This document shows, piece after piece, positions 7,167-33,500 of a stretch of 38,694 nucleotides of DNA. The notes below the pieces were generated by a model. It was given only the letters and a program-made list of their open reading frames with translations. It did no database searches and was not told the origin of the DNA. How positions within the stretch are numbered: position 1 is the stretch's first letter; each line of letters begins with the position of its first letter. The translations under genes were made by a program, and so were the position numbers. Source of the DNA: Verrucomicrobiales bacterium (lineage in GTDB: Bacteria > Verrucomicrobiota > Verrucomicrobiia > Verrucomicrobiales > DEV007); NCBI GenBank assembly GCA_002698785.1, contig PAAG01000006.1, forward strand, positions 1 to 38,694, read 5' to 3'.

Positions 7167-7535
7167 ATGAAAAGACTGTGTTTCATCTCGCTACTCCTAC
7201 TCCAATCTTGCTCTCGCTCTCCACTTGAGAGCGAAGGATTATCAATCGTACGAGCTCCTACGGAATCACAGACTCTCTATGTGATGGAGATGTCTTACAA
7301 ATCCAACGGAAAAGTAATCGATGGACCTTTAGTTGAAGGAAACGACCTAAAAATCAAATACGTCGATTTAGATGACGATGGGCGCTTGGATGTCTTGTTT
7401 CAGAATCGTTTCGTGGAAGGAGAGTATGCAAAAATCATATTCCGTCCCGGCGCTCCAGATGACGATGTCTTCAAAATTCTCGACTACAACGGCTGTTCTA
7501 TCAGTTGGGCTCCGTTTGGGAATGTTTTCCCGTAA
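7167..7535 (+). CDS. lipoprotein A, candidate immunity protein
   Basis: A 122-aa protein with a short basic N-terminus and lipobox LLLLQSC (Cys15), so a lipid-anchored periplasmic protein. It is the first of three paralogues in this block and shares C(S/T).(S/N)PL(E/K)S(E/K)GL after the Cys. A DLDDDGRLDVLF segment resembles the Ca-binding loops of FG-GAP/VCBS or EF-hand type, followed by FRPGAPDD and NGCSI. It starts 10 bp behind the orphan lysozyme-like cassette. A periplasmic lipoprotein next to a periplasm-active toxin is the expected place for an immunity protein. No known family is recognised. Confidence 0.7.
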   Translation: MKRLCFISLLLLQSCSRSPLESEGLSIVRAPTESQTLYVMEMSYKSNGKVIDGPLVEGNDLKIKYVDLDDDGRLDVLFQNRFVEGEYAKIIFRPGAPDDDVFKILDYNGCSISWAPFGNVFP

Positions 7536-7571: not shown

Positions 7572-7949
7572 ATGCGAACGACTCGCTCAAGAAAAGTAAA
7601 GGAAAGATTCCACATCTGCCTACTCTCATTACTAATCGGTTTCGCATCGTGTTCTCGCTCTCCACTTGAAAGTAAGGGGTTAAAGATCGAACGGGCGCCC
7701 ACTGAGTCTCAAACACTATACATTATGGAGATGTTTTATGAATCAAATGGAAAAGTGCTGCATGGCCCACGAGTTCGGGGAAACGACCTTAAAACCAAAT
7801 ATATCGACTTAAACCATGATGGAAGTTTGGATGTTATGTTTGTAAACCAATTTATTGAGGACGAGTATGCAAAAATTATTTTTCGCCCAGGCGCTCCAGA
7901 TGATCAAGTGTTCGAAGTTATCGACCATAAAGGCTGCTCGATCAGATGA
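7572..7949 (+). CDS. lipoprotein B, paralogue of lipoprotein A
   Basis: A 125-aa lipoprotein precursor with a basic N-region (RTTRSRKVK), hydrophobic stretch and lipobox IGFASC. After the Cys it is close to lipoprotein A through SRSPLESKGLKIERAPTESQ, the DLNHDGSLDVMF loop, FRPGAPDD and KGCSI. It is then shortened at the C-terminus, ending where the flanking transposon-derived element begins about 25 bp later. The gap to gene A is 36 bp, so the pair probably arose by tandem duplication and may be co-transcribed. The role is inferred as spare immunity. Confidence 0.65.
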   Translation: MRTTRSRKVKERFHICLLSLLIGFASCSRSPLESKGLKIERAPTESQTLYIMEMFYESNGKVLHGPRVRGNDLKTKYIDLNHDGSLDVMFVNQFIEDEYAKIIFRPGAPDDQVFEVIDHKGCSIR

Positions 7950-8449: not shown

Positions 8450-8762
8450 TATTTTTTCTCTCGCAGTTGGTCTACTTCTCATCTCATGCACGGAAAACCC
8501 TCTGAAATCGAAAGGGCTCCGAGTTAGAGAAGAATATGGTCAGAGCGATAGCTTCAGTATTATTGAACTAAGCCTTGGAAAGGAGAGTTCTTTGTTTGTG
8601 ACTGGCAGTCTACTCGAAATCCACTACGAAGACCGAACGCAGGACGGCGAACCCGAAGTTGTTATATCCAACGCTGGCTCAAAGAAGGAAATCGTCATTA
8701 CCATTAAAGACGAGAAGTTGCTTGTTCTCAAAAACACCGGGATATCTGTAGGTGCACCTTGA
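8418..8762 (+). CDS. lipoprotein C, divergent third paralogue
   Basis: A 114-aa protein from ATG at 8418. This start is chosen because it gives a signal sequence and lipobox LLLISC; upstream in-frame ATGs would add an unlikely leader. After the Cys it shares T-E-N-P-L-K-S-K-G-L with lipoproteins A and B. The acidic loop is degenerate (DRTQDGEPEVVI), so calcium-type binding is probably lost or altered. It overlaps the broken toxin tail by 32 bp. It is probably an orphan immunity gene retained after its toxin decayed. Confidence 0.65.
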   Translation: MNVQLAQLRSSIFSLAVGLLLISCTENPLKSKGLRVREEYGQSDSFSIIELSLGKESSLFVTGSLLEIHYEDRTQDGEPEVVISNAGSKKEIVITIKDEKLLVLKNTGISVGAP

Positions 8763-9226
8763 TTTACAAATATAGTTCTACTGATAACAAGGGGTCAGTT
8801 GAGAATGGCGCTGCATTGAGCGCTATTCTCAATAATTACCCGATTCGCTCCGTGTGTAATTCCACAGTATCTTGTGCTTTTTCCTCCACTTCGGAGAAAC
8901 GTGATCTCGAAGTCACGCCTGAATGCCGAGCCACTCGGGTCAGACAACATGTCATCGGTGTTGGTTTGTAGTTTTCATCGACTTCGAGGGTATTGCTCCC
9001 TCAAAGACCGAACCAGCTCTCTTCCATGTTATCCGCCCCCTTAAGCGGTTCATCATACCCATAACATACCGTTGCCAGAGGCGCAGCGACTACCAGCAAC
9101 TGGGGTCCGTTCTGAAATGGCATTAATCGTAGAAGGCACCGCATCAATATGCAGCTCAACCTTGAGAAGTTTCCCAACCCTCCGCTTGCCTGATCACATC
9201 ACGGAGTACACCATGCACAACACTTC
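8763..9226. other. 464-bp non-coding stretch with a REP-like hairpin
   Basis: No credible gene is present. It contains AGGGGTCAGTT (8790-8800), matching the outer end of the transposon-derived elements, followed at once by a strong hairpin (8801-8830). The remainder to 9226 shows no recognisable coding or structural signal. The promoter of the TPR-CHAT gene must lie here, but no clear -35/-10 pair stands out. Confidence 0.5.
8801..8830. repeat. REP-like hairpin following a GGGGTCAGTT end
   Basis: A 12-bp stem, GAGAATGGCGCT against AGCGCTATTCTC with one G-U pair, closes a 6-base loop. No T-run follows, so it is not a typical terminator. Its position directly after GGGGTCAGTT suggests a REP-type hairpin related to the RAYT family. 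Confidence 0.55.
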
Positions 9227-12200
9227 ATGAGCCTTTATTCCCCTGCACTCCTTTGCGCCGTGCTCGCGACCACTCTTTTCTGCGGGATGGCACTCGGCGA
9301 AGAATCAGTGACGGCCAAAGTTTCCGGCCTGCTGACCAGGATGACTGACCTGGGAGATGCCGAAAAATACGAGGACGCCGCCAGCGTAGCACGAGAACTA
9401 CTGGATCTGGCGGAAAGCACGTGGGGAGAAAATCACGAAGCCACGATCAAGTGCAATTCCTATCTCGGGAAATATCTATTCTACGGCAGGAAATACGACG
9501 AAGCGGAGACTTACCTCCAGCGCTCCCACCAATTCTACGAGTCCGCCGGGAGCCCTCTCGAAGAAGCGGAAATGGTGGCCCGCTGGCTCGGCGATATCTA
9601 TTTGGAAAAAGATGATTTCGACGAGGCGGAAACATACTACAAAAAAGCAGTAAAACTCGCCATCGCCTACCATGGGAAAAACGGCTTTCAGACGATTCTC
9701 GATCTCGTCCAAATGGGGGATTTCTATTTGGACACCGGTCGCTTTGAAGAGGCGGAAGCATACTACCGCAAAGCGCTCGAGCTATCAGCGCCATCCGAAG
9801 AGAATACCGGCGAGATCCTCGTCGCAGTCCTGCATTCTCTCGGTTACCTCAGACACCGTGCAGGAGACTATGACGAAGCGGAGAAATTCTACTCCGCAGC
9901 TGTCGAGACCTCTCGTACCACCTATGGCGAGGCAGAAGAAAATGCCGTCGAGATGGCGGACGAGCTCGTCTTTGTCTTCCTCGAACAAGAAAAGTATGAA
10001 AAGGCAGAGAAACAGATAACAACACTGCTCGAATCATGCCTTTCGAAACACGGGCGAGAAAGCCAGGAGGCCGCCTACTGCTACGCCCTTCTGGCCGAGG
10101 TCCATCTCCGAAAGGGCGATTTCACAAAGTCACGAGAATTCGCTGAAAACACACTAACTATAACCCAGTCAAATGGAGAGAAGGAATCGCTACCGGCTGG
10201 AATCGCCAGCGCCGTACTCGGTTCCAATCTAGTAAAAGAATATCGCTACCGAGAGGCCAGGAACTATTTCGACCCCGCGAGAAAGATTTTCGAAAACGAA
10301 CTGGGAAATGCCCATCCGCGCACCGCCCGGCTCTATCATTCCTACGGATCGTTGGAACTCGCCCTGGAACACGGGACCGAAGCACGCAGCCTTCTCGCGA
10401 AGGCACTCGCGTCGAAGCTGGCCGCCTACGGCCAGGGCCACCCGCAGCTATACCTTTCCCTTTCCGACATCGGCGTGGCATTCACCGAACTCGGCGACTT
10501 CGAACCAGCAAGAACGTATCTGGAAGAATACTACAATCACTGCGTTTCCGTCGCAGGCGTCGGAGAAGTGAAAACAATCGCCGCAGCCGGAAACCTCGCA
10601 TCGCTGTATCGCGAAATGGGCGATCACACCAGGGCACGGGAATTTCTCGAAGCCTCGATCGAGGCAGCAACGAAAGCCGGCAACGAAACCGACCCCAGTG
10701 CACTGATCCTGTACGAAGACCTTGCGACCCTCTGCTCCAATATGGGTGAATACCAAAAAGCCGAAAGTCTTCTCACCATATCACTAACAGGAAACAAAAC
10801 CAACACAGACCTGGCCCCCGAATCCTCAATCGATCTCCTGATCGCGCGCGCCAACGTGGAAGCCGACCAGGGCAAATACCAGAAAGCCAAAGAGCTTCTC
10901 GAAAACGCAGCCGACGTTGCAGAGGAAAACTTCGGACCAGACTCCCTCCACCTCTACTCTCCCCTGCTTCACCTTTCCACCGCACTCGGCCATCTGGGAG
11001 AGTATGCCTCAGAGGACCGCATTCTGCGAAGGTGCATGGCGTTACTCAAGGAAAACGGGAGGGAGAAACACCCTGACATGGCCGCCATCTATTCGAATCG
11101 AGCCGCACTCCGCAGTAGTCTTGGTCAATATGCCGAGGCCCGGGCGCTGCACAACAAGGCACTCGAAATCGAATCCGAGGTCTACGGCCCCGACCATCCC
11201 GAGTTGGCCGGAGACGTCTACCTGCTCGGCACGACCCTGCTTCAATTGAAGCAATACGATCTCGCCGACAAAGCGTTCCTCCGTGCGATGGATCTGCTAA
11301 CCGATCACAAGATCGACCGCGAGCTGATTCCGCTTATCGCCACCGGCCGCGCCAGGGCACAACTTCAGCTCGGAGACATCAAAGAAGCCGAAAAATGTTT
11401 TCTCCTCGGTGTACAACATGCCCGCAACATCCACGGTTCCGAACACAAGCGAATGGCCGATGCGCTGTCCGCCCTCGGGTTCTTCTACGTCAGGAAAGGC
11501 GACCTGCAAAAAGCGGAACTACGATACCTCCAGGCGCTCGAAATCTACGAAAACACACTCGGGAAAGAGCACGAATCTGTGTATGGGATGAAGAGAGAAC
11601 TCGCTTTTCTTTACCACTTGCTGGACCGTCCCGAATACTCTCTCGCCCTTGGGAGAATGACGGTAAAGCACGACGCCGCATACTGGCAACAGATGCTGAC
11701 CTACTTTTCCGAACGCGAATGCATCTCCGCCCGGCTCGAGAACAACACCGTGAACCTGCCTGGCACACTCGCCGACGGCTGGCTCGCAGCAGAATTCCAG
11801 ATCCGTTTCAAAGGCTCCGTCCTCGATGCCTTGAGCGACCGCAGGCGAGCCGCTGGAATGCTGAAAGACAACCCGGAAGCACTGGCTCTCAGCGAGCAAC
11901 TCGATACACTCGCAAAACAATATCGAGCCGCAGTTCTGGAGTCAGGCCTCGAAAGCAAACAGACCATCCAACTGCGGGAACAAGCTGAGAATCTGGAAAG
12001 GAAAATCGCCAGCCTTCTCCATACCGAAATAGAGAACTCCGCTCCCTGTTCGATCGGCGTCGACGAAGTCCGGAAATCCTTGCCCCGCGATGCGGCCCTC
12101 GTCGAATTTTTTCGTTTCGAAGAAATCGCCAAAGAAGAACCTCACGAGTTCCGCTACTCCGCCGTCCTGATCACGTCGGACAAACCCCCGGTGTACATTC

Positions 12201-13381
12201 CGCTCGCTCCGGCAAGCGTCGTCGATACGGCCATCGACCAATATCGAGACATCATCAATAGCGCCACCTCAGGTCCTCTGAACGACACGAAGTCCCTGAG
12301 CCAGTTTCATGAAGTAGAGGCCACTCTTTACGAATCGATCGTCGCCCCTGTCGAGAAATATCTCGCCGGGAAAAAGACCCTCATCCTGAGCCCCGGAGAC
12401 AAGCTGGACTTTCTACCCGTCAGCTTTCTCCGCGACGGAGAAGGCACCATGCTGCTTTCCAAATACAACGTGCGGTATGTCACTACCGGGCGGGACCTCC
12501 TCGCCCCGGCCGCCGCGCCCGCCTCGCAACAGCCGCGAGCGCTCCTGGTAGGCAACGCCCTCTTTCACTCCAGCGCAAACCTTCCTGACACACTACTCAC
12601 TACCAGCCGCTCCGCGGATATGCGAGGAGAGATCGAAGAGCATATCGGCACCTCCTCCAGGGGAATAAACCTCCCTCCCCTGCCAGGCACACAAAAAGAA
12701 GTCGATAAAATAGAACAACAACTGAAGACAAGAGGATTCGAGGTCGTCCAGCTCAATCGCGATGGCGCCACCGAGGCGGCACTTTCCGAAACCTGCCAAC
12801 AGGCCGATGTCGTCCATCTCGCCACCCACGGCTTCATCCTCGACCAGTTGGACATCGACCTGGAAAGCACCGACGAGTCCGAACCGGCACCCCTCGCGGT
12901 ACGGCACCCCATGTTCGTCTCCGGGCTCGCCCTGACGAATGCGCAAAACACCTTCGAACTTTGGTCGAAAGGCCAGATTCCCGATCCGGCCAACGACGGA
13001 ATCGTTCTCGCCGCGGAAATGGCAGAGCTCGACCTCTCCGACGCTTCCCTGGTCGTTCTCAGTGCCTGCGACACCGGGGTAGGCCTGAGTTTGGGCAACG
13101 AAGGCGTGCTCGGTCTCCGACAAGCCCTGAACGCCGCCGGTGCAAAAAACATCATTCTGACACTATGGCCCGTCGGGGACGAACCCACCGTCGAGATCAT
13201 GGAAGACTTCTACACCCGCTTCCTGGCAGGCACACCTCCCTCCCAGGCCCTGGCTGAAGCCCAGAAAGCCCTCTTCCCGAAATGGGAACAGGAATACGGC
13301 GAGATCAACGCAATCGCATTCCTCGCTCCCTTCCTGTGCACCAGCACCGGTCCGGCACCAGCCACAACAGAGCCCGAGTGA
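9227..13381 (+). CDS. secreted TPR-CHAT caspase-like protease
   Basis: This 1384-aa protein starts at ATG 9227 with a signal peptide (cleavage expected after residues ALG-E, about residue 24). Residues ~30-830 are a long series of TPR/Kinesin-light-chain-type repeats with recurring Y.eAe..y..al motifs. Residues ~1010-1375 form a CHAT domain, the caspase-like clan CD fold of the HetF-TPR family: VVHLATHGFIL supplies His1201 and VVLSACDTGVG supplies Cys1281, both intact. The downstream GNEGVLGLRQAL, TLWPVGDEP and FYTRFLAG motifs complete the family signature. The CHAT domain should therefore be a competent Cys protease in the periplasm, gated by TPR-bound partners. It converges on the next gene with 19 bp between stops. 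No substrate is evident. Confidence 0.9.
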   Translation: MSLYSPALLCAVLATTLFCGMALGEESVTAKVSGLLTRMTDLGDAEKYEDAASVARELLDLAESTWGENHEATIKCNSYLGKYLFYGRKYDEAETYLQRSHQFYESAGSPLEEAEMVARWLGDIYLEKDDFDEAETYYKKAVKLAIAYHGKNGFQTILDLVQMGDFYLDTGRFEEAEAYYRKALELSAPSEENTGEILVAVLHSLGYLRHRAGDYDEAEKFYSAAVETSRTTYGEAEENAVEMADELVFVFLEQEKYEKAEKQITTLLESCLSKHGRESQEAAYCYALLAEVHLRKGDFTKSREFAENTLTITQSNGEKESLPAGIASAVLGSNLVKEYRYREARNYFDPARKIFENELGNAHPRTARLYHSYGSLELALEHGTEARSLLAKALASKLAAYGQGHPQLYLSLSDIGVAFTELGDFEPARTYLEEYYNHCVSVAGVGEVKTIAAAGNLASLYREMGDHTRAREFLEASIEAATKAGNETDPSALILYEDLATLCSNMGEYQKAESLLTISLTGNKTNTDLAPESSIDLLIARANVEADQGKYQKAKELLENAADVAEENFGPDSLHLYSPLLHLSTALGHLGEYASEDRILRRCMALLKENGREKHPDMAAIYSNRAALRSSLGQYAEARALHNKALEIESEVYGPDHPELAGDVYLLGTTLLQLKQYDLADKAFLRAMDLLTDHKIDRELIPLIATGRARAQLQLGDIKEAEKCFLLGVQHARNIHGSEHKRMADALSALGFFYVRKGDLQKAELRYLQALEIYENTLGKEHESVYGMKRELAFLYHLLDRPEYSLALGRMTVKHDAAYWQQMLTYFSERECISARLENNTVNLPGTLADGWLAAEFQIRFKGSVLDALSDRRRAAGMLKDNPEALALSEQLDTLAKQYRAAVLESGLESKQTIQLREQAENLERKIASLLHTEIENSAPCSIGVDEVRKSLPRDAALVEFFRFEEIAKEEPHEFRYSAVLITSDKPPVYIPLAPASVVDTAIDQYRDIINSATSGPLNDTKSLSQFHEVEATLYESIVAPVEKYLAGKKTLILSPGDKLDFLPVSFLRDGEGTMLLSKYNVRYVTTGRDLLAPAAAPASQQPRALLVGNALFHSSANLPDTLLTTSRSADMRGEIEEHIGTSSRGINLPPLPGTQKEVDKIEQQLKTRGFEVVQLNRDGATEAALSETCQQADVVHLATHGFILDQLDIDLESTDESEPAPLAVRHPMFVSGLALTNAQNTFELWSKGQIPDPANDGIVLAAEMAELDLSDASLVVLSACDTGVGLSLGNEGVLGLRQALNAAGAKNIILTLWPVGDEPTVEIMEDFYTRFLAGTPPSQALAEAQKALFPKWEQEYGEINAIAFLAPFLCTSTGPAPATTEPE

Positions 13382-13400
13382 TCTCGTATTGTTAGACTTA

Positions 13401-15194
13401 CTATTCCGGCTTCCGCTCCGGACGTCCGAACAGCGCCAGCGATCGTCTCTGATCTTTTTCTTCGTACGACATAGGCACCAGCATATAGTTGGCAACACCT
13501 TCCTCTTTGTGCCGAAAAATCGCCATCGCGGATTCGGTCTCCGGAACGTCGTGCACCGTGAGCGTTCGTCCCTCGACATCGCCCCGAATGTCCGAAGCAA
13601 TCAAGGAGCGCTTCCACGCCTCCTCATCGACGTACGATTTCCCGATCAATACAGTGAGAAGAGCGTTCACCTCCTCCAGCGTCGGCTCCGGCTCCGGCTT
13701 GTCCACATCGATGTCGCCATTCTCATCGAGCTCCAGGATTGTCAGCCGGTACTCGAGGATCTCTTCAGAGTCAGTTCGATAATAGACACCTATGGTTGCA
13801 AGACGCTGCTTGTCCTTCGATAACATAACGGCATACAAGCGAGACTTTCGACCATCACCATGGTCTTCTTCCCGGAGGAGAGGAGCCACCTCGAGCTTCT
13901 GCAACTTCCTCCAGAGTTCCATCCACCGATCCAGTGTCCAGGGAACTCCATCGTCCCAGTCCTTTGAAGGGTCTACCATTGTCGAATCCTTCGTGCCAGA
14001 TCCGGAAATACTGTCTGCCTCAGACATGTCGGGAGAAAGAATCAGACTACCATCTGTCCCCTCGGGCGCGTCGAGCACCATCGGCTCCAGGTACCAGTCC
14101 CCAACCTCGAGAGTCTTCACCAGAGTGATTTTCCGCGACAGCATGTATCCGTCCAAACCCGGCACCTCGTACTGCTTTAACAAATCGCCCGTCAACTCAC
14201 GAGCCTCCTCTTCCGGAAGATCCAGTTGCAAGCCCAGTCCCCTCGGAGTCGTCGAGACGAGCAGATTGTCCTCCATCTCCTCTTCCCCGGAATAATTTTT
14301 CCCGCCCGTGATCTCGCCTAACATAGCATTCATCTCGTCCCACTTCGCACTGCGCTCGGCGGGTAAGCCTTCGATATCGATCTTCTGGTCGTAAACCTTC
14401 GGAGTGATTTTCCGAACCTGCTTTTCACCCGCCATCAACTCCACATAGACCATGGCCTTCAACTCGCCCTCAAGTTGTGTTTCCGGCAGGGAGAAAACAT
14501 ACAACTCCCGCCCGCCCGGGAGAGCCGTCATTTCGCGAACGAGGCTCCAGCGTTCCCGGCAGGCATCAATATCCACCGGAGGCCCCCCGGCATCCCCCCT
14601 TGCCACGGCTGGCTCGCTGGCCTTTTTCTTCTCCACGAACCTCCGCTTCTCCTCCGACGTCAAAGCTTCGATCCGGTAGTAAGTAACCTTGTCGGCTCCA
14701 TCGTACTCCACCACCATCAATCCATTCACTCCCGGAATGTCATAGGCCGAATTCACCAAGTCCCCGCCGTCAGTCTCCTCTTCCTCGGTCCAGAGAAGCA
14801 GCCTATTCTCCTTGTCAGGAAAGGGTGACGGGATTCCTGTCACCAACTCGACCACTTCGTCCAACTCCTCATCCGTGGGATCCCGAGGAGTCATCTCCTG
14901 CCCGTCCGCGCTCACGCCGTAAAACATGAATATATACTGATCGATACGCTTCGATGCCTTATCCACATTTACCGTGATCGCCCGGATATCCACCGAATTT
15001 TGATCGAGATCGTAGAGGTAGGACAGAACACCTTCCTCCTCCTCATACTCCCCATTGAGGACTATCTTTCCCTCTGGATCCTCCTTCTCCAACCGCTCCT
15101 CCCAATCTTCCAGTGTCCTTGGGATATCGGCCAAGAGGACGACTGGAAAAGAAAGAAACAAAAAAACGACAGCAGCGTAGAAGATTCGACTCAT
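13401..15194 (-). CDS. secreted protein with three divergent internal repeats
   Basis: ATG at 15194 is preferred over a TTG at 15257 because it gives a clean signal peptide (SRIFYAAVVFLFLSFPVVLLA). The mature protein (597 aa in total) contains three divergent ~180-residue units. Each has a Trp-containing opening (TLEDWEERL, ACRERWSLV, TLDRWMELW), a central strand-rich block, an acidic helix before a five-to-six residue GITGGKNY/LIGKSY-like turn, and a VPG/VPE segment near the end. No enzymatic motif or known domain is recognised. It is strongly acidic and probably periplasmic or surface-exposed. It converges with the TPR-CHAT gene, so any functional link is only positional. Confidence 0.7.
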   Translation of the reverse strand: MSRIFYAAVVFLFLSFPVVLLADIPRTLEDWEERLEKEDPEGKIVLNGEYEEEEGVLSYLYDLDQNSVDIRAITVNVDKASKRIDQYIFMFYGVSADGQEMTPRDPTDEELDEVVELVTGIPSPFPDKENRLLLWTEEEETDGGDLVNSAYDIPGVNGLMVVEYDGADKVTYYRIEALTSEEKRRFVEKKKASEPAVARGDAGGPPVDIDACRERWSLVREMTALPGGRELYVFSLPETQLEGELKAMVYVELMAGEKQVRKITPKVYDQKIDIEGLPAERSAKWDEMNAMLGEITGGKNYSGEEEMEDNLLVSTTPRGLGLQLDLPEEEARELTGDLLKQYEVPGLDGYMLSRKITLVKTLEVGDWYLEPMVLDAPEGTDGSLILSPDMSEADSISGSGTKDSTMVDPSKDWDDGVPWTLDRWMELWRKLQKLEVAPLLREEDHGDGRKSRLYAVMLSKDKQRLATIGVYYRTDSEEILEYRLTILELDENGDIDVDKPEPEPTLEEVNALLTVLIGKSYVDEEAWKRSLIASDIRGDVEGRTLTVHDVPETESAMAIFRHKEEGVANYMLVPMSYEEKDQRRSLALFGRPERKPE

Positions 15195-21845: not shown

Positions 21846-23054
21846 TCACTGACCGATCGCCCTCGGCGCATTCCCTTTCAACAAAGGTCGCCATGTGGAG
21901 ATCTCAATCTCTCCACGCCACGAAAAGCGTGCCTTCACATTATCCAGCTTCATCAGCACCCATGGAGTGAGCTGTGAACGATCGTTCTTCGTTAGCACAA
22001 TATCATCAGCCACATAGACACAGGCGTGGACGATATTCCCGGACTCAGCATTCCGAAACACTACCATATCTCCATACCGACTGGCAGTATCAATTGATTC
22101 ATACTTCTCCGAAAGTCGCGCCGTCAGGCTGGTGGTCTCTACTTCAGGTGTTTCGGGAAAAGCTCTAAAAAAGTTAAAGCTCGTCCAGATACTGTCAGGA
22201 AAAACACCACCGAGCCCGTCTCCGTTGGAAGGGAACTCGTAGAGATACTTCTTCGGAACCGCGGGAAAAAAATTCGACGGATCAATGGTATTGTCAGGCT
22301 CCGTCACACGCAGGACGGATTCGAGCAACGGCGCTGTGGATTTCACCTTTCCTTCGAGGGTCCAGTAATCAGCAAGTGCCTTCGCCGCATTGGCATCAGC
22401 AGGGATTTCCAATTCGAGCACCAGCGTCTGCGATCGAGTCACGGCACGACGCAGGGCACGATCTTCCTCGACCCGCGCCGCGTATTGAAAAAGAAGAGGC
22501 ACGTCAGAAAAGGCGAGTGTCGAGTCGCCCACCGGGTAGCTGAGCTGCTCGATCAATTCAATCGCCGGAGCAGGCAGATTCAGCGGGGCAAACCACTCAC
22601 GAGGCGAAGTCGAATCGATAAACACAGGGCGGTAGTGATACCGATTTCCTGAGAAATCGGAGAGCTTCGCATAGATCTTTCGAAGAATGTCAGGAGGTAT
22701 CGCGAGTATCGCCTTCCTGCTGGGAAACGCTCGCACCTCCTCATCTTCGGGTAGCTCCTGCAGGGCGATTTCTTTCCGGAACAGCTCGACAACATCCGGT
22801 CGAGACTGCGCGGTGGATTCGAGATACTCGATCAACTCCTCTGCCGTCGAGTATTCAGGAAATCGCCACATCGTCGCTGCCGGTGGGGACGCAAATAGCT
22901 GAAGAGTCGACTCGGGAACTTCGAGGAACACCTTGGAATATCGCAGCTCCCCCCACGGACCGGGATTACAATCCACTACCTGCGCCCGCGACGGGAGACC
23001 GTGAAGAAGCAACAGAAACACGAAGCCGAAGATGAAGGGCACCCGACTCCTCAT
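21846..23054 (-). CDS. secreted NlpC/P60-like paralogue lacking the nucleophilic Cys
   Basis: A 402-aa precursor with a signal peptide (RVPFIFGFVFLLLLHGLPSRA). Its ATG overlaps the stop of the upstream gene by 4 bp, so the two are translationally coupled. The last ~130 residues match the neighbour: FPDSIWTSFNFF, then YGDMVVFRN, then VHACVYVADDIVLTKND and TPWVLMKLDNV. In the neighbour the first motif carries Cys316, but here the position is Ser288. His343 is retained. The protein is therefore probably an inactive binding partner or regulator. The N-terminal ~250 residues are a helical domain shared with the paralogue and not recognised. Confidence 0.65.
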   Translation of the reverse strand: MRSRVPFIFGFVFLLLLHGLPSRAQVVDCNPGPWGELRYSKVFLEVPESTLQLFASPPAATMWRFPEYSTAEELIEYLESTAQSRPDVVELFRKEIALQELPEDEEVRAFPSRKAILAIPPDILRKIYAKLSDFSGNRYHYRPVFIDSTSPREWFAPLNLPAPAIELIEQLSYPVGDSTLAFSDVPLLFQYAARVEEDRALRRAVTRSQTLVLELEIPADANAAKALADYWTLEGKVKSTAPLLESVLRVTEPDNTIDPSNFFPAVPKKYLYEFPSNGDGLGGVFPDSIWTSFNFFRAFPETPEVETTSLTARLSEKYESIDTASRYGDMVVFRNAESGNIVHACVYVADDIVLTKNDRSQLTPWVLMKLDNVKARFSWRGEIEISTWRPLLKGNAPRAIGQ

Positions 23055-24316
23055 TCGCGATACTCGGGTTTCAGCCTCAGGTAAAAGGCCGTGATCTTGT
23101 CATCATTGAGGTAGGACGCGAGGATGTCGTCCAATTGCTGAAAGACCCACGGCCTCCTCTCGCTCTTCCCGTTTTTGGTGAACATGATATCTCCCGCGAT
23201 GTAGTTGCAGGCGTGGATCCATCTCGAATCCGAGTCTTTGATTACCAGAATGTCTCCCAACTGCGGTGGCAGTTCAGCTCTTTCGTAGCGCTCTTCGGAA
23301 ACCTTTTTGAAATCAGCCAGATTTCCCGAGCGCACTTCATTGGAGAAAAAAGTAAACGCCGTGGAAAAACAATCCGGCCAGAAATTTCCAATGCTCTCAC
23401 CAGTATTCGGATAGGTATTGAGAAGCCCCTTGTTCTTCGCCGGCAGCAATCGTCCCAGTTCAATGGTGTGTATGGCAGGGTTCTCGAGAGCAGTCTCGAT
23501 CAGCCCCCTCGCCTTTTCATTCCTTCGAGACGCCGTCCAATATTCGAGGATCTCATCATGAGACTGACCCGCCAGAGCCGACAGATCCAGCCAGGCGAGC
23601 ATCGACATTTCGCGGTGAAAAGTTTTCAGAATTCCCAGCCGCTCCGTTTCGCTGCGTGCCTGTTGCAGGGTCCACCGAACGTCGGAAAAAAGCAGATCAT
23701 TTCCCTTTCCCCAGAACGACATCCGTTCGATCTGAGAAATCCGATTCGTGGAAAGGCCTGATGTCTTACCCGCCATTCGGGAAAACCCACCATTCCACAA
23801 CACATACGGATAACGAAAAAGATTCCCTTCCACATCCTGCCCGATGTGCCGATAGAGCAAAGCGCGAATCTCGGGAGTGAGGTGCCGAATCACTTCGTCC
23901 GAGGGGAACACTCTCGTCCCGCCTCCACTCGACGAGTCATCCCGAGCCGTCGCGAGCAGCGCCTCCACATCGCCCTCCAACAGCCCGCTTTCGCGTAGCA
24001 ACTGCCGCACCCCATCGGGCGACTGGCGAAATGCCCAGGTCACCGGTTCTTTCCACGTCTCGAATTCGGGATAAGCAGTCACCGTATCACTGGTCGGCTC
24101 GAGAACCAGCTCCCGGCAGGCGATCTCGCCCCAGCGCCCCGCATACCGTGTCTTGAAAGCCGGAACCTCCCCCGGATCAATCGTGCGCTCAGGCGACTCC
24201 GGCTTCGCGATATTCCCTGCAAAAGCGGGCCCGGAAGAGCAAATCACAAGCATCGTGAGCCCAAGAATCGACAGAGTCGAAAGGACACAGGAATACACTC
24301 GAATGGAACGGGGCAT
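23051..24316 (-). CDS. secreted NlpC/P60-like cysteine hydrolase candidate
   Basis: ATG at 24316 gives a signal peptide (RVYSCVLSTLSILGLTMLV then AFA); a TTG at 24355 would add 13 residues. The 421-aa protein has a ~290-residue helical N-terminal part and a C-terminal papain-like module. NFWPDCFSTAFTFF places a candidate nucleophile at Cys316 at a helix start. PPQLGDILVIKD and WIHACNYIAGDIMFTKNG give His368. PWVFQQLDDI closes it. The order Cys-then-GD-then-His is that of NlpC/P60 peptidases, which cut peptidoglycan stem peptides. The fold call is based on motifs only. It is the first gene of a two-gene operon with a Cys-less paralogue. Confidence 0.65.
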   Translation of the reverse strand: MPRSIRVYSCVLSTLSILGLTMLVICSSGPAFAGNIAKPESPERTIDPGEVPAFKTRYAGRWGEIACRELVLEPTSDTVTAYPEFETWKEPVTWAFRQSPDGVRQLLRESGLLEGDVEALLATARDDSSSGGGTRVFPSDEVIRHLTPEIRALLYRHIGQDVEGNLFRYPYVLWNGGFSRMAGKTSGLSTNRISQIERMSFWGKGNDLLFSDVRWTLQQARSETERLGILKTFHREMSMLAWLDLSALAGQSHDEILEYWTASRRNEKARGLIETALENPAIHTIELGRLLPAKNKGLLNTYPNTGESIGNFWPDCFSTAFTFFSNEVRSGNLADFKKVSEERYERAELPPQLGDILVIKDSDSRWIHACNYIAGDIMFTKNGKSERRPWVFQQLDDILASYLNDDKITAFYLRLKPEYRE

Positions 24317-24488
24317 TGTTGGCGTGGCAAACCAGTGCGAGAACGATTGGGTCAAACCGAGCCCTCACTGCGGAAGGAACAAAATCATGGAATTACAGGG
24401 AAGAAACGTGAAATTCCACACATCTTCAAGGTACAAGATGCAGTACCACATGACTGCGTATGACACCCCGTTCGATTCGACTATTCCC

Positions 24489-24534: not shown

Positions 24535-24954
24535 ATGCTGGGAGTGACCTACAAAAGCGAAGCCGCACATGTCTTTTCGGACGCAGAGGTCGAAGAGTTG
24601 GCGGAGAAAGCCGCAGAGTTCAACGCCTCTGTGGGAATCACCGGGTATCTCTACTACGCCCACCCCGTATTCCTCCAGTATATCGAGGGCGAAACCGAGG
24701 CGATCGAATCGCTGATGGAACAAATCGCCAAAGATCCACGCCACACAATCGTCGCCACAGCAAAGGATGAGGACAGGGTGAGCCGCAGATTCCCATCCTG
24801 GTCGATGCGCCTCTTCCAGCCGGGGCGGGATCCAGAGATCAACCTACAATCGATCTGGTCGGACATGCTCTCGATCGAAGCCCTCGACTGGCCGGGCGAA
24901 CGATCCAACTCGATCTGGAGATGTATCGAAAAGATCTCTTCGACACAGGCCTAG
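24535..24954 (+). CDS. BLUF-domain blue-light photoreceptor
   Basis: A 139-aa protein that is essentially a single BLUF domain, which binds FAD and senses blue light through a Tyr-Gln hydrogen-bond switch. The key residues are in place: Tyr6 in VTYKSEA, Asn30 in FNASVGITG, Gln48 in FLQYIEGE, and the FPSWSM segment with Trp89 and Met91. The start at ATG 24535 leaves a slightly shortened N-terminus relative to the usual M-hydrophobic-strand. A ~45-residue C-terminal helical extension follows, and no output domain is fused, so it must act through a partner. Its stop is 33 bp from the stop of the convergent CheB-CheR-kinase gene. Confidence 0.9.
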   Translation: MLGVTYKSEAAHVFSDAEVEELAEKAAEFNASVGITGYLYYAHPVFLQYIEGETEAIESLMEQIAKDPRHTIVATAKDEDRVSRRFPSWSMRLFQPGRDPEINLQSIWSDMLSIEALDWPGERSNSIWRCIEKISSTQA

Positions 24955-24987
24955 CACAGCACTCTCACTCCTCGACGAGCCACATTC

Positions 24988-27900
24988 TCAATCGTCCCGC
25001 TTGGTCCACTTCTTAGACGTCTGCCGCTTCGGCACTCGGTAGTTCGGGAGATCGACAAAGAATCGAGTATCTCCCTTCTTCGAAGTCACGCGGATGGTCC
25101 CGCCATGCGCCTCGACAAACGACCGGGCGATGGAAAGGCCGAGCCCGCTGCCCGATTTCCCCGTGTTTTTGATCCGGTAAAAACGCTCAAAGATTCGTTC
25201 CCGCGCCTCCTTTGGTATCCCGTCGCCTTCGTCGCTCACTTCGAAACGCAGCTTACGATTGTTCTTTTCCACGAACGATGCGTAAAGCTCGACCGTGCCA
25301 TTCTGAGGCGAATATTTGATAGCGTTGTGCAGGATGTTCACCAGGGCAGTGCGAAGCCGCTCGATATCCACGTAGATCACAGGATCGTCCGTATCATCTG
25401 TCAGGATGAGCTCGACGTCATTGTGCACCGCGGTAGCCTCGACGGCTTCGAAAACGGATTCCAGAAACTCAGAAAGCTGAACGACCTCTCGACGACACGA
25501 ACTGTCTTCCATTTCGAAGCGAGTCAGGTCCAGCAGCCCGTTCACCGTGCGCCGCATGCGATCGACCTCTTCGGACATGTTGCGAAGAAGACCGCGATAT
25601 TTCCGAGGCGATTCATCCATCCGCCCTTCCAGCATCAGCAAAAGAGGCAGCTGGATGGCGGCGAGTGGATTCTTCAGCTCATGGCTGGCAGCACCTAGCA
25701 GATCACTCTTTTCTGCATCGAGCTCCTGCCAGGTAGTCACATCCTCCAGGACGACCATGGCACCGAGAGGGTGTTCTCCATCATCAAAAGTGACCGGCGT
25801 CACACGGGGCTGAAAAAAGAGTTTCTCCTTCCCGATCGTCATGGGAAAGGACCGCAGTTTACACTTCACGTACTTACCGGTCTTTAATGTCTTATCGATG
25901 CAGTCCTCCACCTCGTCGGGGAAGCGACCGCTGGCTTCGCTCTTTTTCAGATGACTGATAATGTCGCGCCCCGCATTGCTCGCATACTCAAGTTTCCTGT
26001 CCGCATCGTAGACGAGAACCACACCGGGAAGCTCCCGCACGATTGTCTCGAGAGTGCGAATGAGAATACGCAGACTCTCTTCCTTCGCATGGAGATCACG
26101 TATGTCGCGCGCCACCGTGGAATAATACCCGATGCTCTCCCCACCTTCGTCGCCCGGATGCGCGATCACGACCTGGTTCACCGGGATCTCCGTCCCGTCG
26201 GCATGGCGGATGAAGTTCTCCATCGAAATTGCGTCACCCGGCGAGAGCTCCCTGAGGTTCTCCGCTAGCTTGGTCAGCCTGTCAGGAGTATGCCAGAAAC
26301 TGAGCGGTTTGCCCTCGACGTCAAAATCGCTCTCATACCCCGTCATCTCCAGACCAGCAGGATTCACATAGGTACATGTCAGGTTCTCATCGACCATTCC
26401 CACAAAGTCCGGCGATTTCTCAAGAACAGTCGCGAGCCGGTCGCGCTGCAATTGAAGAGAAGAAACTTCGGTGATGTCGACAAACGTCAGCAAGACGCCG
26501 CGAATCTCATTCTTTACCCGATACGGCAGGATGCGCTTGAAAAACACACGTCCCTGTCGATCGCGAATCTGTCGTTCACGAGTATTTCCATCTTCCAGCG
26601 TCAGCCTCGCTTCCGAGAAGAGACGCTTGCTCATTAGCGAGTGGCTGAAGCTCTCAATGCTCCGCCCTTCATCCTGCGGCAACAGGTCGAAAAAATCGCG
26701 CACCTTGGGGGTGAACTTTCGGATGGCGAGATTCCGGTCGAGGAAAATCACGCCCACCTCAGTGCTCGTGAGCAGATTCTCGAGGTCGTTCGTCATCTCG
26801 CTCAGTTCCGTGATCTTGCGCTGGTGCTCCGCATTCACCGTATGGAGTTCCTCATTCACGGAATGCAGTTCCTCGTTCGAGCTTTGAAGCTCTTCGTTAC
26901 TGGCTACGAGTTCTTCGTTAGTGGCCTGCAGTTCCTCATTACTCGTTTCGAGTTCCTCGATGGTTGCCTGGAGGTTCTCCTTCGTATACTGCAACTCCTG
27001 CTCGATGTTCGAAATGTGCTCCCGCGTGAGTGCTGACAGATCGACTTTCTCATTTTCCGGCAGCGAAATGGCCTTGTCGCTCACAGCAGGCGCCTTGCCT
27101 GTATGAAAGGCGAGAAAGTAGAAATTCGCCGTCCGTCCTTCCTCTCCCAGCACCGAAATCGTCAGGTCGAAGCGACTCTCCTCGTCACCCTTCCCGACCG
27201 GGATACTGGTGTAAGTGACAGTCGTCCCCTTTCTCGCCGCATGCTGCAGCGCGCCGGAGATCGGTGTGCGCAGGTCAGGGTCGAGCAGGTCGAGAACGTT
27301 CGTCGAAGGCCGCCCGCGATTCACACGAAGAAACTGGTCCGCATCCCCGAAAGTATGAAGCAGGTGAAAGCGATCGTCCACCAACAGCCCCGCCGGTGCA
27401 AAGCGATTCAAAAGATCATCGTAGACCTTGATCAATTCCGAGTCACCCATCGCACCAGCCCACCTGTCGCTCTCTCCCGTGTTATGAATGATCGGCGGAA
27501 GAAGCGTCCGGGTTTCCGTGGGCAGGCGAACGTCCCGCCGCTTTCGGTAGATCTTCCAGTGCGTATCGATAGACTCGAACTCGTCCAGCAGGTCGCCCGG
27601 CGTTTCGCTCGGCCCAAGAAAGAGAACACCCCCGGTTCGCAGCCCGAAGTGAAACAGCGAGACAGCCTTCTTCTGCGCCACAGGCCGAAAGTATATCAAG
27701 AGATTCCGGCACGTGACGAGGTCCATTCTCGTGAACGGCGCCGACTTGATGACGTTGTGATAGGCAAAAATCACACTCTGCCGTATCTCGCTGGTGACCT
27801 TCCACGTCCCATTGCCGAGATCCTTGAAATACCGGTTCTTCAGATCCTCATTTACCTCTAACAAAGCATCCTCGACATAGACCCCACGCCCCGCATAGTC

Positions 27901-29016
27901 CAGTGACTGGCGGTGGACATCGGTTGCGAAAATCTTGATCTCGATAGTGCTGTTCCGCTTCCGCCTTTCCTCCTCCAGCGCGATAGCGAGGGTATACGGC
28001 TCCTCCCCTGTTGCACAGCCAGCGCACCACACACGCAACTCACCCTCCCGCTCCGCCGAGCGAAAGAGCGAGTCCATTATCTCCGGAGACGCCAGCGCTT
28101 CAAATGCCTCAGGATCTCGGAAAAACTTCGTCACACCAATCAGCAAATCGCGATAGAGATTCCCCAGTTCTTCCAAATCGCGACGCAGAATCTCGACATA
28201 ACGATCCAGCTCCACCCCCGCCATCTCGAGTCGCCGGTCGATCCTCCGGAGAACAGTCGTGGGTTTGTAATGCTGGAAATTGATTCCGTATTCCGCGCGG
28301 ATCAGCTCGAAGAGCCGCTCCATGTCCCGACTCACCGGATCAAAGCTCGCCTGGTCAGGATCATCATGCTCACACTCAGTCGTAGGAGCACGGCTGATAT
28401 AGTCTAAAATGACCGGCATCATTTCCTCCGGCTTCAGAATACGATTCACCAGCCCGGTCGCGACCGCACTCTCCGGCATACCATCGAACTTCGCAGAATC
28501 AGAATCCTGACAGAGAATCAATCCACCCGCTTCAGCGATGCGCTTCAGCCCCCGGGAACCATCGCTGCCAGTACCGGAAAGAATCACCGCTACCGCACAC
28601 TCACCCACATCATCGCCCAGCGACTTGAAAAAGCGATCGATCGGCAGGGACATGCCATCATTCGGGTCCTTCTCCCGCAACAACAACCGCCCGTCAGAAA
28701 TGATCATCTCCCGCCGCGGCGGCAAAAGATAAATCGTGTCAGGCTCCGCCGCGAGTTCACTGGCCGCCTGCTTGATCTTCAACCCCGTCTTTCTCCCCAG
28801 CAGATCATCCATCCGACTCTCGTAATCCGGAGACAAATGCTGGATCACGAAAAATGCACAACCAGACTCCGCCGGTATGCGCTCCACAAACCTCTCGAGC
28901 GCCTCAAGTCCGCCAGCACTCGCGCCAATGCCCACATACCGCACGGGCGACGCCGATGGCTCATCAGCAGATCGATTCTCTTGAGATTCAAGGATTTCTA
29001 TTTCTTCGTCTTCCAT
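24988..29016 (-). CDS. CheB-CheR-PAS-histidine kinase fusion protein
   Basis: A 1342-aa soluble signalling protein. Residues ~25-205 are a CheB-type methylesterase with Ser33 (GASAGG), His60 (QHLSP) and Asp152 (GTGSDGSRG) intact, and no receiver domain in front. Residues ~230-490 are a CheR-type methyltransferase (VLRRIDRRLEMAG, WCAGCATGEEPYTLA, CRNLLIYF). Residues ~665-745 form a long coiled coil of 'EELqatNEEL' repeats, as in other CheB/CheR-PAS kinases. Three PAS-like segments follow. The HisKA box ASHELKNPLAAIQ has phospho-acceptor His1112. The ATPase has NILHNAIKYSP, DEGDGIP and GSGLGLSIA. There is no C-terminal receiver and no membrane segment. The partner response regulator is not in the window. 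The physically convergent BLUF protein is a possible input. Confidence 0.92.
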   Translation of the reverse strand: MEDEEIEILESQENRSADEPSASPVRYVGIGASAGGLEALERFVERIPAESGCAFFVIQHLSPDYESRMDDLLGRKTGLKIKQAASELAAEPDTIYLLPPRREMIISDGRLLLREKDPNDGMSLPIDRFFKSLGDDVGECAVAVILSGTGSDGSRGLKRIAEAGGLILCQDSDSAKFDGMPESAVATGLVNRILKPEEMMPVILDYISRAPTTECEHDDPDQASFDPVSRDMERLFELIRAEYGINFQHYKPTTVLRRIDRRLEMAGVELDRYVEILRRDLEELGNLYRDLLIGVTKFFRDPEAFEALASPEIMDSLFRSAEREGELRVWCAGCATGEEPYTLAIALEEERRKRNSTIEIKIFATDVHRQSLDYAGRGVYVEDALLEVNEDLKNRYFKDLGNGTWKVTSEIRQSVIFAYHNVIKSAPFTRMDLVTCRNLLIYFRPVAQKKAVSLFHFGLRTGGVLFLGPSETPGDLLDEFESIDTHWKIYRKRRDVRLPTETRTLLPPIIHNTGESDRWAGAMGDSELIKVYDDLLNRFAPAGLLVDDRFHLLHTFGDADQFLRVNRGRPSTNVLDLLDPDLRTPISGALQHAARKGTTVTYTSIPVGKGDEESRFDLTISVLGEEGRTANFYFLAFHTGKAPAVSDKAISLPENEKVDLSALTREHISNIEQELQYTKENLQATIEELETSNEELQATNEELVASNEELQSSNEELHSVNEELHTVNAEHQRKITELSEMTNDLENLLTSTEVGVIFLDRNLAIRKFTPKVRDFFDLLPQDEGRSIESFSHSLMSKRLFSEARLTLEDGNTRERQIRDRQGRVFFKRILPYRVKNEIRGVLLTFVDITEVSSLQLQRDRLATVLEKSPDFVGMVDENLTCTYVNPAGLEMTGYESDFDVEGKPLSFWHTPDRLTKLAENLRELSPGDAISMENFIRHADGTEIPVNQVVIAHPGDEGGESIGYYSTVARDIRDLHAKEESLRILIRTLETIVRELPGVVLVYDADRKLEYASNAGRDIISHLKKSEASGRFPDEVEDCIDKTLKTGKYVKCKLRSFPMTIGKEKLFFQPRVTPVTFDDGEHPLGAMVVLEDVTTWQELDAEKSDLLGAASHELKNPLAAIQLPLLLMLEGRMDESPRKYRGLLRNMSEEVDRMRRTVNGLLDLTRFEMEDSSCRREVVQLSEFLESVFEAVEATAVHNDVELILTDDTDDPVIYVDIERLRTALVNILHNAIKYSPQNGTVELYASFVEKNNRKLRFEVSDEGDGIPKEARERIFERFYRIKNTGKSGSGLGLSIARSFVEAHGGTIRVTSKKGDTRFFVDLPNYRVPKRQTSKKWTKRDD

Positions 29017-30537: not shown

Positions 30538-33500
30538 TCACCTTTTCTCCACGACTGAATGCACAGTGTCGCTGAGGGAAGGATCACCTATCGACCCCAC
30601 TCGCAACCTGAACACCTTACTCAGTCTCCTTTTGCTCTTTGCTGCTCTCGCGGTGGGACGAATCAGGATTCCTGCCCTCGTTCTGTCGCTGGAGGCATAC
30701 CCTCTCTGCAGTCCCCTCGTAGTAATGACCCCGGTATCATTAAACGTGTTCACCCGGTAAACGGGACGGAAAAATCGATTTCCCGGCGTGCCTATTATGC
30801 GAAACACGTCTCCGCTTTCCCCGTCATTTTCGATTACGAGATAGAAAGCCGTCCTCCTTTTTCCTTTCACAATTCTCTTGAGCCTTTGCGCCCGAGAAAA
30901 CGAATAAATGTTATCCCCACGGAGGGCCTCGTAGCTCGCGCCCAAAAGTGCATCCGGTCGAAAAGGAGGGCCCACTGTGCCAAATCCCACAACGGAAGAA
31001 CTCAACACGCCAGAAATTTCGCCCGCAACGGCCTGGATGAAATAGTAATATTGATAGCCCGGCTCTCCTTCCTCATCGAAGTAGGTCAGATCAGCAGTCG
31101 CCCATACTATCTCAGCCACGGAAAAATCGTCCAGGGGACTTCGGTATACTATGTAGCTGTCAGCGCCGGGCACCGGTTCCCAATTGAGTTCGACAGCACC
31201 TTGAAACATCCCCTCTGAGGCTCGAAACCCAGTCGGCGGATCGATCCATACGTGTCCAGAATTGATCACGCTGGCTTCTGAATTCGCTTCCGAATTTGCC
31301 GCAACGACGTAGTAGGAATACAAAATCCCTGGAAGAACATCATAGTCCACGAAGGCAGTTGTCGTCGTCGTTTCAATCAGGGAGTAGGGCTCTTCCTCTC
31401 CTGGCGAGCGATACAGGTTATACCAGTCGGCATGGGAGCTACTCGTCCATCCGACCTCGATGCGATCTTTGAAATCTCCATCCGTTGCCGATATGAGAAC
31501 AGGCGTGGTGGGAACCAATGGCGCCAGACTACCCGCCGCACCTTCGCTCAACTCTCCCTTCTGCGAATTGGTCCGAGCTTCCACGAAATAGTAATACGTC
31601 ACGCCATGTTCGGCCCCGTAGTCAAACGCCTTCAAAAACGATGCCACTTCTACGATTTGCTCTGCAGTTGAAGCATCGTTGATCTCACTCCGGTACACAC
31701 TGTAGTAATCTGCACCTGCAACTTCTTCCCAGGTGATTTCTACCCTGTCCGGGCTTGTACCCTGAGAAGCTTTCACCCCAGTGGGAGGAGGGAGAAATCT
31801 CTCTTCGACGAAAACCGAAACGCTTTCACTGGGGTCTCCAGATCTCCCGGAGCCCGACGACCGAATCCAGAAAAAATACTCTTTCTCTATATACCGTACA
31901 CGAACTGTATAGGCTTCGCCAACTGCCGTTCCACTGTCAGACGCCCCTAAAAAGTCGTCTTCCGTATTCCAGTACACTGAGTAGGAGGCTACCCCATCTA
32001 CCCCCTTCCAAGTGAGATCGACTTCGAACATATTATCCTCACTCTGTGTCGCTTCGATCTCCGTGGGCGCCGGGGGCCCTGGATCCGATCGCATACCCTT
32101 CCCTAACGTGCTGAACCGACTCTCTCCAAACTCATTTTTAGCCACGACCGCATAGTAGTAAGTCTTCTCCGTCTCGGGGGGGACATCATCGGCTCGCGCC
32201 CCGGAAATATTCGACCTCACAAGAGCCAACATATTTTCGATCCGACTCTCCGATCGATAGAGATCATAAGAAGTGGCATTCGGAATTTCTTCCCATTGGA
32301 TCACGATTTTCTCATGAAATGTCCGGAACGTTCCCCAAACATGATTCGGCTCGACCGGAAGATTCGAACGAATATGCCCGCGTTCCGCGCGAGTTTCCCC
32401 CCCCCCGAAATCGTTCTCACCTCTGACCCAATAGTAATAGCTGATTCCGGGAAGCGCCGTCGTGTCGCTAAAACGGGTTTCCTGGAGTCCTGCTGCCAGG
32501 GTCTCCGCGTAAACAACGGAATCGGTCGTATTTCTCAGAACCCGATAGCTGGTTGCGGTTTTGGAAACAGCCCACGACAATTCCACCCGGTCATCGAATG
32601 CTCCGTCTGTTGCGGAAAGGTCAGACGGAGACCTCGCTGCAATGCTGAAAGTCATGCCTGGGTTACGTGCAGGGTACGGCCCGCCCACGCCATTTTCATT
32701 CTCCGAAGTGATCCAGTAATAGTAGGCTCTCCCGACCTCGACATCTTCATCAATCCACGAAAACTGGGACCAGTAGGGGTGAGTGCTAGGCCAAAACAGT
32801 TCGTCAATTACAGCCATTTCCACCGCATCTTCCAGCCTCTCAGTTTCCGATCTCAAAATGCGCACCGTGTGGGCACGCGAATCCCCCTCCTCCCAGTTCA
32901 CCTGAATGCCATCGACGAGAGCACTCGTATCCAGATATCGAATAATAGGCGGGCGGTCACTGATCAACCCGGGAGCGTCTCCAGCCAGATTCGATGACCG
33001 GGAACCATCCACAGCGACCACATGATATCGAAACTCTCCCAGAAAAGTAATGTCAGGGTCTGTAAAAAGAGTGTTCACAGTTGTTCCTACCGGTACCAGC
33101 GCGTTCGGCGGAGGTCCTATTGCCCTTCGGAAAATCCAATACTCTGACGCCCCTGGGACCGGTTGCCAGGTTACGTCAATACGATCGCTATACGTTCCTA
33201 TCGTTGCCCTGATTCCCCCCACGGTAGGCAGTGAATCCTCCGGCTCTTCATCAGGCCGAATCAGCCCCAACACCCGATCACCATCTTCATTCACGAACCG
33301 ATAGACGACGCTCCCCGAGACGAGCACATCAAACCTCCCGGCTGCGAGGTAGCCACCATCGGGAACATCTTCATTCGTATCTAGAGGCCACTCACCCAGC
33401 GTCGCCCCGTCACTTTTGGAGAATCTACGAATGTAGTGGCGGGAATCCCCCTTGCTGAGCACGTAAAAATCCGGTGCTCCATCGAGAGTGACCACATCCA

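What the first reader, a model, noticed from the sequence alone, without database searches (positions are those of the whole stretch)
9227..13381. CHAT protease with an export signal
Most described TPR-CHAT proteins act in the cytoplasm. This one has a signal peptide, ~800 residues of TPR, and intact His1201/Cys1281. A gated caspase-like protease in the periplasm would be an unusual defence or signalling set-up.
Basis: partly seen in the sequence, partly recalled or inferred. Interest (0 to 1): 0.55.

Follow-up and report, generated by a model that had tools for sequence, protein, structure and literature searches.

The report
Exported TPR-CHAT caspase-like protease
This gene encodes a large caspase-like protease that carries a signal for leaving the cytoplasm, and many of its relatives in the same bacterial group carry one too, so a protease type best known from work inside the cell probably works in the cell envelope here.

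Summary
ORF 9227-13381 (+, 1384 aa) has a signal-peptide-like N-terminus, TPRs over about residues 45-800, and a CHAT domain (E 1.8e-58) with His1201/Cys1281. No upstream ATG/GTG/TTG start exists. In 44 aligned CHAT ORFs, the window's included, His is kept in 44 and Cys in 43. Export is not peculiar to this gene: in 20 relatives whose mature start could be anchored by a conserved motif, 19 have a signal peptide there, against 57 of 2147 interior controls. Eleven relatives of one family of the order also end in a membrane helix with a K/R-rich tail, consistent with CHAT outside. The window gene stands alone. A different, mostly exported subfamily adjoins CHASE2-cyclase genes and often two-partner-secretion genes, also in some cyanobacteria. 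Best reading: a TPR-gated CHAT protease acting in the envelope; export, activity, gating and substrate are inferred. Defence is possible but not favoured. Exported caspase-like proteases have precedents, so this is a new variant of a known kind.

The parts
9227..13381 (+). exported TPR-CHAT protein, 1384 aa
9227..9298 (+). signal peptide, residues 1-24, predicted cleavage ALG|EES
   Evidence: rule-based scan; aligned with the N-termini of paralogues C39 and, loosely, C58
9299..11641 (+). TPR solenoid, about residues 25-805 (boundaries approximate)
   Evidence: Pfam TPR_12, 10 stretches; kinesin light chain TPR matches
11642..12319 (+). segment between the TPRs and the Pfam CHAT match, about residues 806-1031
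   Evidence: by exclusion; 50% identical to C39 over residues 821-1030
12320..13279 (+). CHAT domain PF12770, residues 1032-1351
12827..12829 (+). catalytic His1201 codon (ATHG)
13067..13069 (+). catalytic Cys1281 codon (SACDTG)

Best explanation
The protein is made with a Sec-type signal peptide, crosses the inner membrane and works in the periplasm or cell envelope as a clan CD (CHAT) cysteine protease. Its long TPR solenoid is the sensing or docking part: when it binds a partner, it repositions the His1201/Cys1281 dyad, and the enzyme then makes a limited cut in an envelope or surface protein. Supported by sequence: reading frame, signal-like N-terminus, TPR plus CHAT, conserved dyad, signal peptides in relatives. 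Inferred: actual export, protease activity, TPR gating, substrate. Probabilities: located outside the cytoplasm about 0.85; active protease if located there about 0.8; substrate a surface or adhesin-type protein about 0.35; defence role about 0.15.
For: TPR and CHAT at strong scores. Dyad H 44/44 and C 43/44, window included. In 20 relatives with an anchorable mature N-terminus 19 have a signal peptide ending there, against 57 of 2147 interior anchors. Each of the six CHAT genes of the genome has an SP-like start, three at the first listed start (window, C39, C58) and three only at a downstream one, which is a weak test on its own. Nearest paralogue C39 (43% identity) has an aligned signal peptide with a basic residue. 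Six of 61 class-level CHAT ORFs by a strict rule, and five more by eye, all from one family of the order, end in a membrane helix with a K/R-rich tail; of these eleven, five have a signal peptide at the first start, three at a downstream start and three none by the rule. Paralogue C39 lies upstream, on the same strand, of a 1825-aa DUF4347/SdrD_B/beta-helix protein, with one 162-aa ORF between. In another, mostly exported subfamily CHAT is next to CHASE2-cyclase and two-partner-secretion genes. Gating by analogy: in Csx29 a TPR activation region repositions H615/C658 (PMC10028731, passages).
Against: The n-region has no K or R. Only composition, not order, distinguishes the N-terminus. Signal peptide at any start in the first 150 codons does not discriminate: 35/41 of the genus-level and near CHAT ORFs and 43/59 class-level ones, against 224/400 other ORFs; at the first start 23/41 and 29/59 against 113/400. 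The 20 anchored relatives are those with motifs I chose after seeing the sequences; the other 24 ORFs, the window's among them, were not in that test. No gene next to it recurs and no substrate is known. The structure model was useless (pLDDT 45).
Confidence: 0.65

Rival explanations
1. The hydrophobic N-terminus is not used: translation starts downstream (for example at Met39) and the protein is an ordinary cytoplasmic TPR-CHAT protein.
For: No basic n-region and, by eye, no Shine-Dalgarno at the usual distance from ATG 9227. TPR-CHAT proteins without a signal peptide exist, e.g. two beside cas1 in Nostoc and Anabaena plasmids.
Against: Paralogue C39 aligns through the signal region and the segment after it, which a Met39 start would cut (C58 aligns there only loosely). 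Other relatives keep diverged signal peptides just before the conserved mature start.
Confidence: 0.08
2. It is an envelope-located defence or conflict effector that recognises phage or rival products and triggers cell damage.
For: CHAT is described as a defence effector domain (PMC10907252, passages). Paralogue loci C39 and C58 contain NB-ARC/DUF7779-TPR and TIR-SLOG, DUF4062-amidase, ParA-TPR genes.
Against: PADLOC on five window proteins gave only a generic TPR model and one weak PDC hit for this protein; no match in phage records at 1e-5; among 21 of 29 gene-like window ORFs scanned by Pfam I saw no defence family; no gene next to it recurs.
Confidence: 0.15
3. It is an exported scaffold with an idle protease domain; TPR binding is the function.
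For: TPRs make up more than half of the protein; one relative (L064) has Arg for Cys.
Against: Dyad and flanking residues nearly invariant.
Confidence: 0.1

Closest known systems
Csx29 (TPR-CHAT of Craspase, type III-E CRISPR)
   Same: TPR with CHAT and a His/Cys dyad (H615/C658; PMC10028731, passages)
   Different: Csx29 works in an RNA-guided complex with Cas7-11 and cleaves Csx30, hence in the cytoplasm (inference); here a signal-like N-terminus and no Cas domain in the window proteins scanned. A chain of 8d9h (a Craspase entry by recall) matches the profile only at E 0.67
HetF of Anabaena
   Same: CHAT, TPR and membrane association
   Different: CHAT fragment is aa 1-555, so N-terminal, and one TM is predicted (PMC8406250, passages); here signal peptide, TPR, then CHAT
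Gingipains and PorU (recalled)
   Same: exported clan CD cysteine proteases
   Different: no type IX sorting-domain model among the NCBIfam hits and only 13 residues after the CHAT envelope
Prokaryotic metacaspases with N-terminal helices
   Same: caspase-like, possible signal peptides, one fused to CHASE2 (PMC3501461, passages)
   Different: C14 metacaspases, not CHAT (0 occurrences of CHAT in the main text); the authors place the CHASE2-fused metacaspase domain in the cytoplasm
CHAT of the TPS/CHASE2/DUF928 cassette
   Same: TPR-CHAT-type protein, mostly with a signal peptide
   Different: different CHAT subfamily; no cassette gene among the window proteins scanned

Membership tests
CHAT protease family (PF12770) | CHAT domain over the curated cut-off | tested here: met
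   198.7 bits against cut-off 24
CHAT protease family (PF12770) | His/Cys catalytic dyad | tested here: met
   H1201, C1281; H 44/44, C 43/44 in the alignment
CHAT protease family (PF12770) | proteolytic activity | not testable with these tools
   needs an assay
Craspase Csx29 | association with Cas7-11/gRAMP and Csx30 | tested here: not met
   no Cas family in 21 of 29 gene-like window ORFs scanned by Pfam; the rest of the genome was not searched
Craspase Csx29 | no signal peptide (recalled) | tested here: not met
   SP-like N-terminus
Gingipain / type IX cargo | C-terminal sorting domain | tested here: not met
   no such NCBIfam model among hits at E 0.01; 13 residues after the CHAT envelope
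HetF | N-terminal CHAT, one TM, TPR | tested here: not met
   order here is TPR then CHAT
TPS/CHASE2-linked CHAT cassette | adjacent CHASE2, ShlB, TPS, DUF928 genes | tested here: not met
   none in the window proteins scanned
Exported protein (Sec signal peptide) | hydrophobic core and AXA-like site at the true start | tested here: inconclusive
   rule met, basic n-region absent, comparative support, no experiment

The most novel reading that the evidence does not exclude
Exported TPR-CHAT proteases form a bacterial envelope signalling system: an extracytoplasmic caspase-like enzyme senses surface events through its TPRs, cleaves giant or two-partner-secreted adhesins, and reports inward, in some lineages through a co-encoded CHASE2 receptor cyclase. 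The window protein would be a stand-alone member of this group.
Probability: 0.25. Interest if true: 0.75.

Novelty: new variant of a known kind. Interest (0 to 1): 0.45.

Why it matters
Of the described TPR-CHAT proteins whose papers I looked into (passages only), Csx29 works in an RNA-guided complex and HetF is a membrane protein of the divisome. A lineage in which many, perhaps nearly all, CHAT proteins are exported would mean that caspase-like regulated proteolysis is also used outside the cytoplasm. In related subfamilies it sits beside receptor cyclases and secreted adhesins, which gives concrete candidate substrates. In the open-licence library I found no paper on exported TPR-CHAT proteins (listings; most listed papers not opened) or on the CHAT/CHASE2/DUF928 cassette (one paper holding two of four terms, not opened).

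Tried and rejected
Single-sequence AlphaFold2 of residues 820-1384 gave pLDDT 45 and was not used for fold searches. 'Signal peptide at any start in the first 150 codons' was dropped as proof because 224 of 400 control ORFs also pass. The scan of 8700-13500 found 2 promoter-like sites (shuffles 1.9) and 10 terminator-like sites (shuffles 5.9, sd 2.5); neither was used. PHROGs on seven upstream proteins gave one match, of unknown function. NCBIfam gave only TPR-driven matches below their cut-offs. Paper searches gave nothing useful; others (DUF4347 with caspase; 8ROT) found no paper. Genome contigs gave one weak TPR match in a Chloroflexi MAG. The phylum scan with profile A1 (29 of 383 genomes) scored at most four candidates per genome, so it is a lower bound and was not used further. 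A survey of another phylum was not done. A tree of CHAT domains was not built.

Full report
What is there. The ORF at 9227-13381 (+) is 1384 aa with an ATG start. The frame upstream ends in a TGA with no ATG, GTG or TTG between. Pfam finds TPR_12 (4.3e-91, 10 stretches) and CHAT PF12770 (1.8e-58, residues 1032-1351); the best solved TPR relatives are kinesin light chains. His1201 sits in ATHG and Cys1281 in SACDTG.

Export. Residues 1-24 read as a hydrophobic core followed by ALG|E. Residues 1-6 carry no basic residue, which is a weakness. My rule is crude: it passes 63 of 1260 interior positions of this protein, and 7960 of 10000 shuffles of its own residues 2-30, so it measures composition. 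At the first listed start it is met by 23 of 41 genus-level and near CHAT ORFs with a stop upstream (3 of the 44 were dropped as open at the 5' end), by 29 of 59 class-level ones, and by 113 of 400 other ORFs of 300 aa or more in the same loci, some of them surely not genes. Allowing any start within 150 codons removes most of the contrast (35 of 41 and 43 of 59 against 224 of 400). One search, with a stricter rule, gave 22 of 44 at the first start, 35 of 44 at any start, and 73 of 1667 interior starts. I therefore used anchored N-termini: in 20 of the 44 ORFs one of three conserved N-terminal motifs marks where the mature chain begins, and in 19 a signal peptide ends there, against 57 of 2147 interior anchors. 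The motifs were chosen after viewing the sequences; the other 24 ORFs, the window's among them, have none of the motifs as I wrote them and were not tested this way. The nearest paralogue C39 has an aligned signal peptide with a basic residue; C58 aligns there only loosely.

Relatives. The genome (7.0 Mb, 60 contigs) has six CHAT genes; each has an SP-like start, three at the first listed start and three only at a downstream start. Of 56 genomes, own included, 39 have a match to the protein, many to TPRs only. Of 286 genomes of the class, own included, 64 have CHAT. I fetched the 60 best-scoring places outside the own genome; they hold 61 CHAT ORFs, of which 29 have a signal peptide at the first start and 43 at some start, the second number being weak for the reason above. 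Six of the 61 by a strict rule, and five more by eye, end in a membrane helix with a K/R-rich tail; all eleven come from one family of the order. With a signal peptide this places CHAT outside; five of the eleven have one at the first start, three at a downstream start, and three (L152, L156, L159) none by the rule, though L152 and L156 begin with a hydrophobic stretch. None of the 44 genus-level and near ORFs has the tail helix. The 16S gene holds the EUB338-III target and not the EUB338 target (probe sequences recalled), which fits Verrucomicrobiota; the phylum is inferred, not shown.

Active site. The 44 CHAT ORFs are the window's, five others of its genome, 35 from other genomes of the genus and 3 from the order. 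His is kept in 44 and Cys in 43, Arg in L064. A profile of 19 of them finds a CHAT protein in the PDB (8rot, E 0.0004), three separases (E 0.26-0.35), a CHAT chain of 8d9h (E 0.67) and an unrelated kinetochore chain (E 0.82), so the link to known structures is weak at sequence level.

Surroundings. Compared with 98 other loci at BLASTP 1e-8, the only window genes besides CHAT with a match elsewhere are the histidine kinase at 36024 (three other loci) and the fn3 protein at 30538 (one other); both lie more than 17 kb from CHAT. ORFs were picked by length, so genes may be missed. Paralogue C39 is followed on the same strand, after one 162-aa ORF, by a 1825-aa protein with DUF4347, SdrD_B and beta helix, the only DUF4347 match in the genome, with NB-ARC-TPR and TPR genes further on. 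Paralogue C58 is near TIR-SLOG, DUF4062-amidase, ParA-TPR and HD-CE/HATPase genes. In a different subfamily a CHASE2-cluster gene adjoins CHAT in 11 of the 60 class loci, and domain search adds G167; two of these genes were Pfam-tested and carry CHASE2 and a cyclase domain. A ShlB cluster occurs in 11 of the 60 loci, four of them of the tail-helix group; four members were Pfam-tested and confirmed. One TPS adhesin and one DUF928 protein were Pfam-tested. Of the 13 CHAT ORFs in loci with CHASE2 or with ShlB outside the tail-helix group, seven have a signal peptide at the first start, five at a downstream start, and one is truncated. The 20 genomes were chosen partly for having the cassette and give no background rate.

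Named records. The window protein matches 95 plasmid records and the L117 CHAT protein 196. I looked at nine regions, four from the first list and five from the second. Two have the full ShlB, CHASE2, hemagglutinin, CHAT, DUF928 set, one has hemagglutinin, CHAT, DUF928, one DUF928 and CHAT, and five none of it in the stretch shown; that gene table is incomplete. By the rule three of the nine CHAT proteins have a signal peptide (L169, L172, L174); L168, which has the full set, fails the rule but starts with a hydrophobic stretch, as do L170 and L171; L166, L167 and L173 have none, two of them beside cas1.

How it most likely works. Exported, TPR-docked or TPR-gated, cutting an envelope or surface protein. 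Gating is borrowed from Csx29, where a TPR activation region changes and H615 and C658 are repositioned (PMC10028731, passages read). The adhesin idea comes from the neighbours of a paralogue and of other subfamilies, not from this gene.

Known or new. HetF is a CHAT protein with one predicted membrane segment (PMC8406250, passages). Metacaspases with likely signal peptides, and one fused to CHASE2, were reported in 2012 (PMC3501461, passages); the fused one was placed in the cytoplasm by its authors. A Bacteroides fragilis CHAT protein was called likely transmembrane (PMC11854122, passages). A CHAT-TIR protein of a defence-like locus was predicted cytoplasmic (PMC10907252, passages). Exported TPR-CHAT as a lineage-wide group was not found in print in the searches. 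I call it a new variant of a known kind.

Noticed in passing
window 9213-9230: A five-codon ORF (ATG 9213, GGAG at 9203-9206) whose TGA overlaps the CHAT start ATG 9227 (ATGA), possibly translational coupling.
   Followed up: no
L107, L110, L113, L114, L116-L121, L127, L129, L135; L168, L172: Recurrent CHAT cassette with CHASE2-cyclase, DUF928, ShlB and TPS adhesin genes, in varying subsets, in class-level relatives and cyanobacterial plasmids.
   Followed up: partly
L038:6358-11835: Surface protein near paralogue C39; its DUF4347 domain shows LLSHA and LLYGC, a possible caspase-like His/Cys pair (lead only).
   Followed up: no
L039:2248-18884: Paralogue C58 lies in an apparent conflict island: TIR-SLOG, DUF4062-amidase, ParA-TPR, HD-CE/HATPase.
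   Followed up: partly
window 7167-7535 and 7572-7949; 21846-23054 and 23051-24355: Two pairs of tandem paralogues with signal-like N-termini; the first pair looks lipoprotein-like, the second has a weak NlpC/P60 hint (E 0.043).
   Followed up: no
window 24535-29016: A BLUF blue-light sensor gene next to a CheB-CheR-PAS-histidine kinase gene.
   Followed up: no
L046:8455-14812: Two CHAT genes in tandem in a related genome (G032).
   Followed up: no
L064:7736-10477: CHAT relative with Arg in place of the catalytic Cys (SARDT), a likely pseudoprotease.
   Followed up: no
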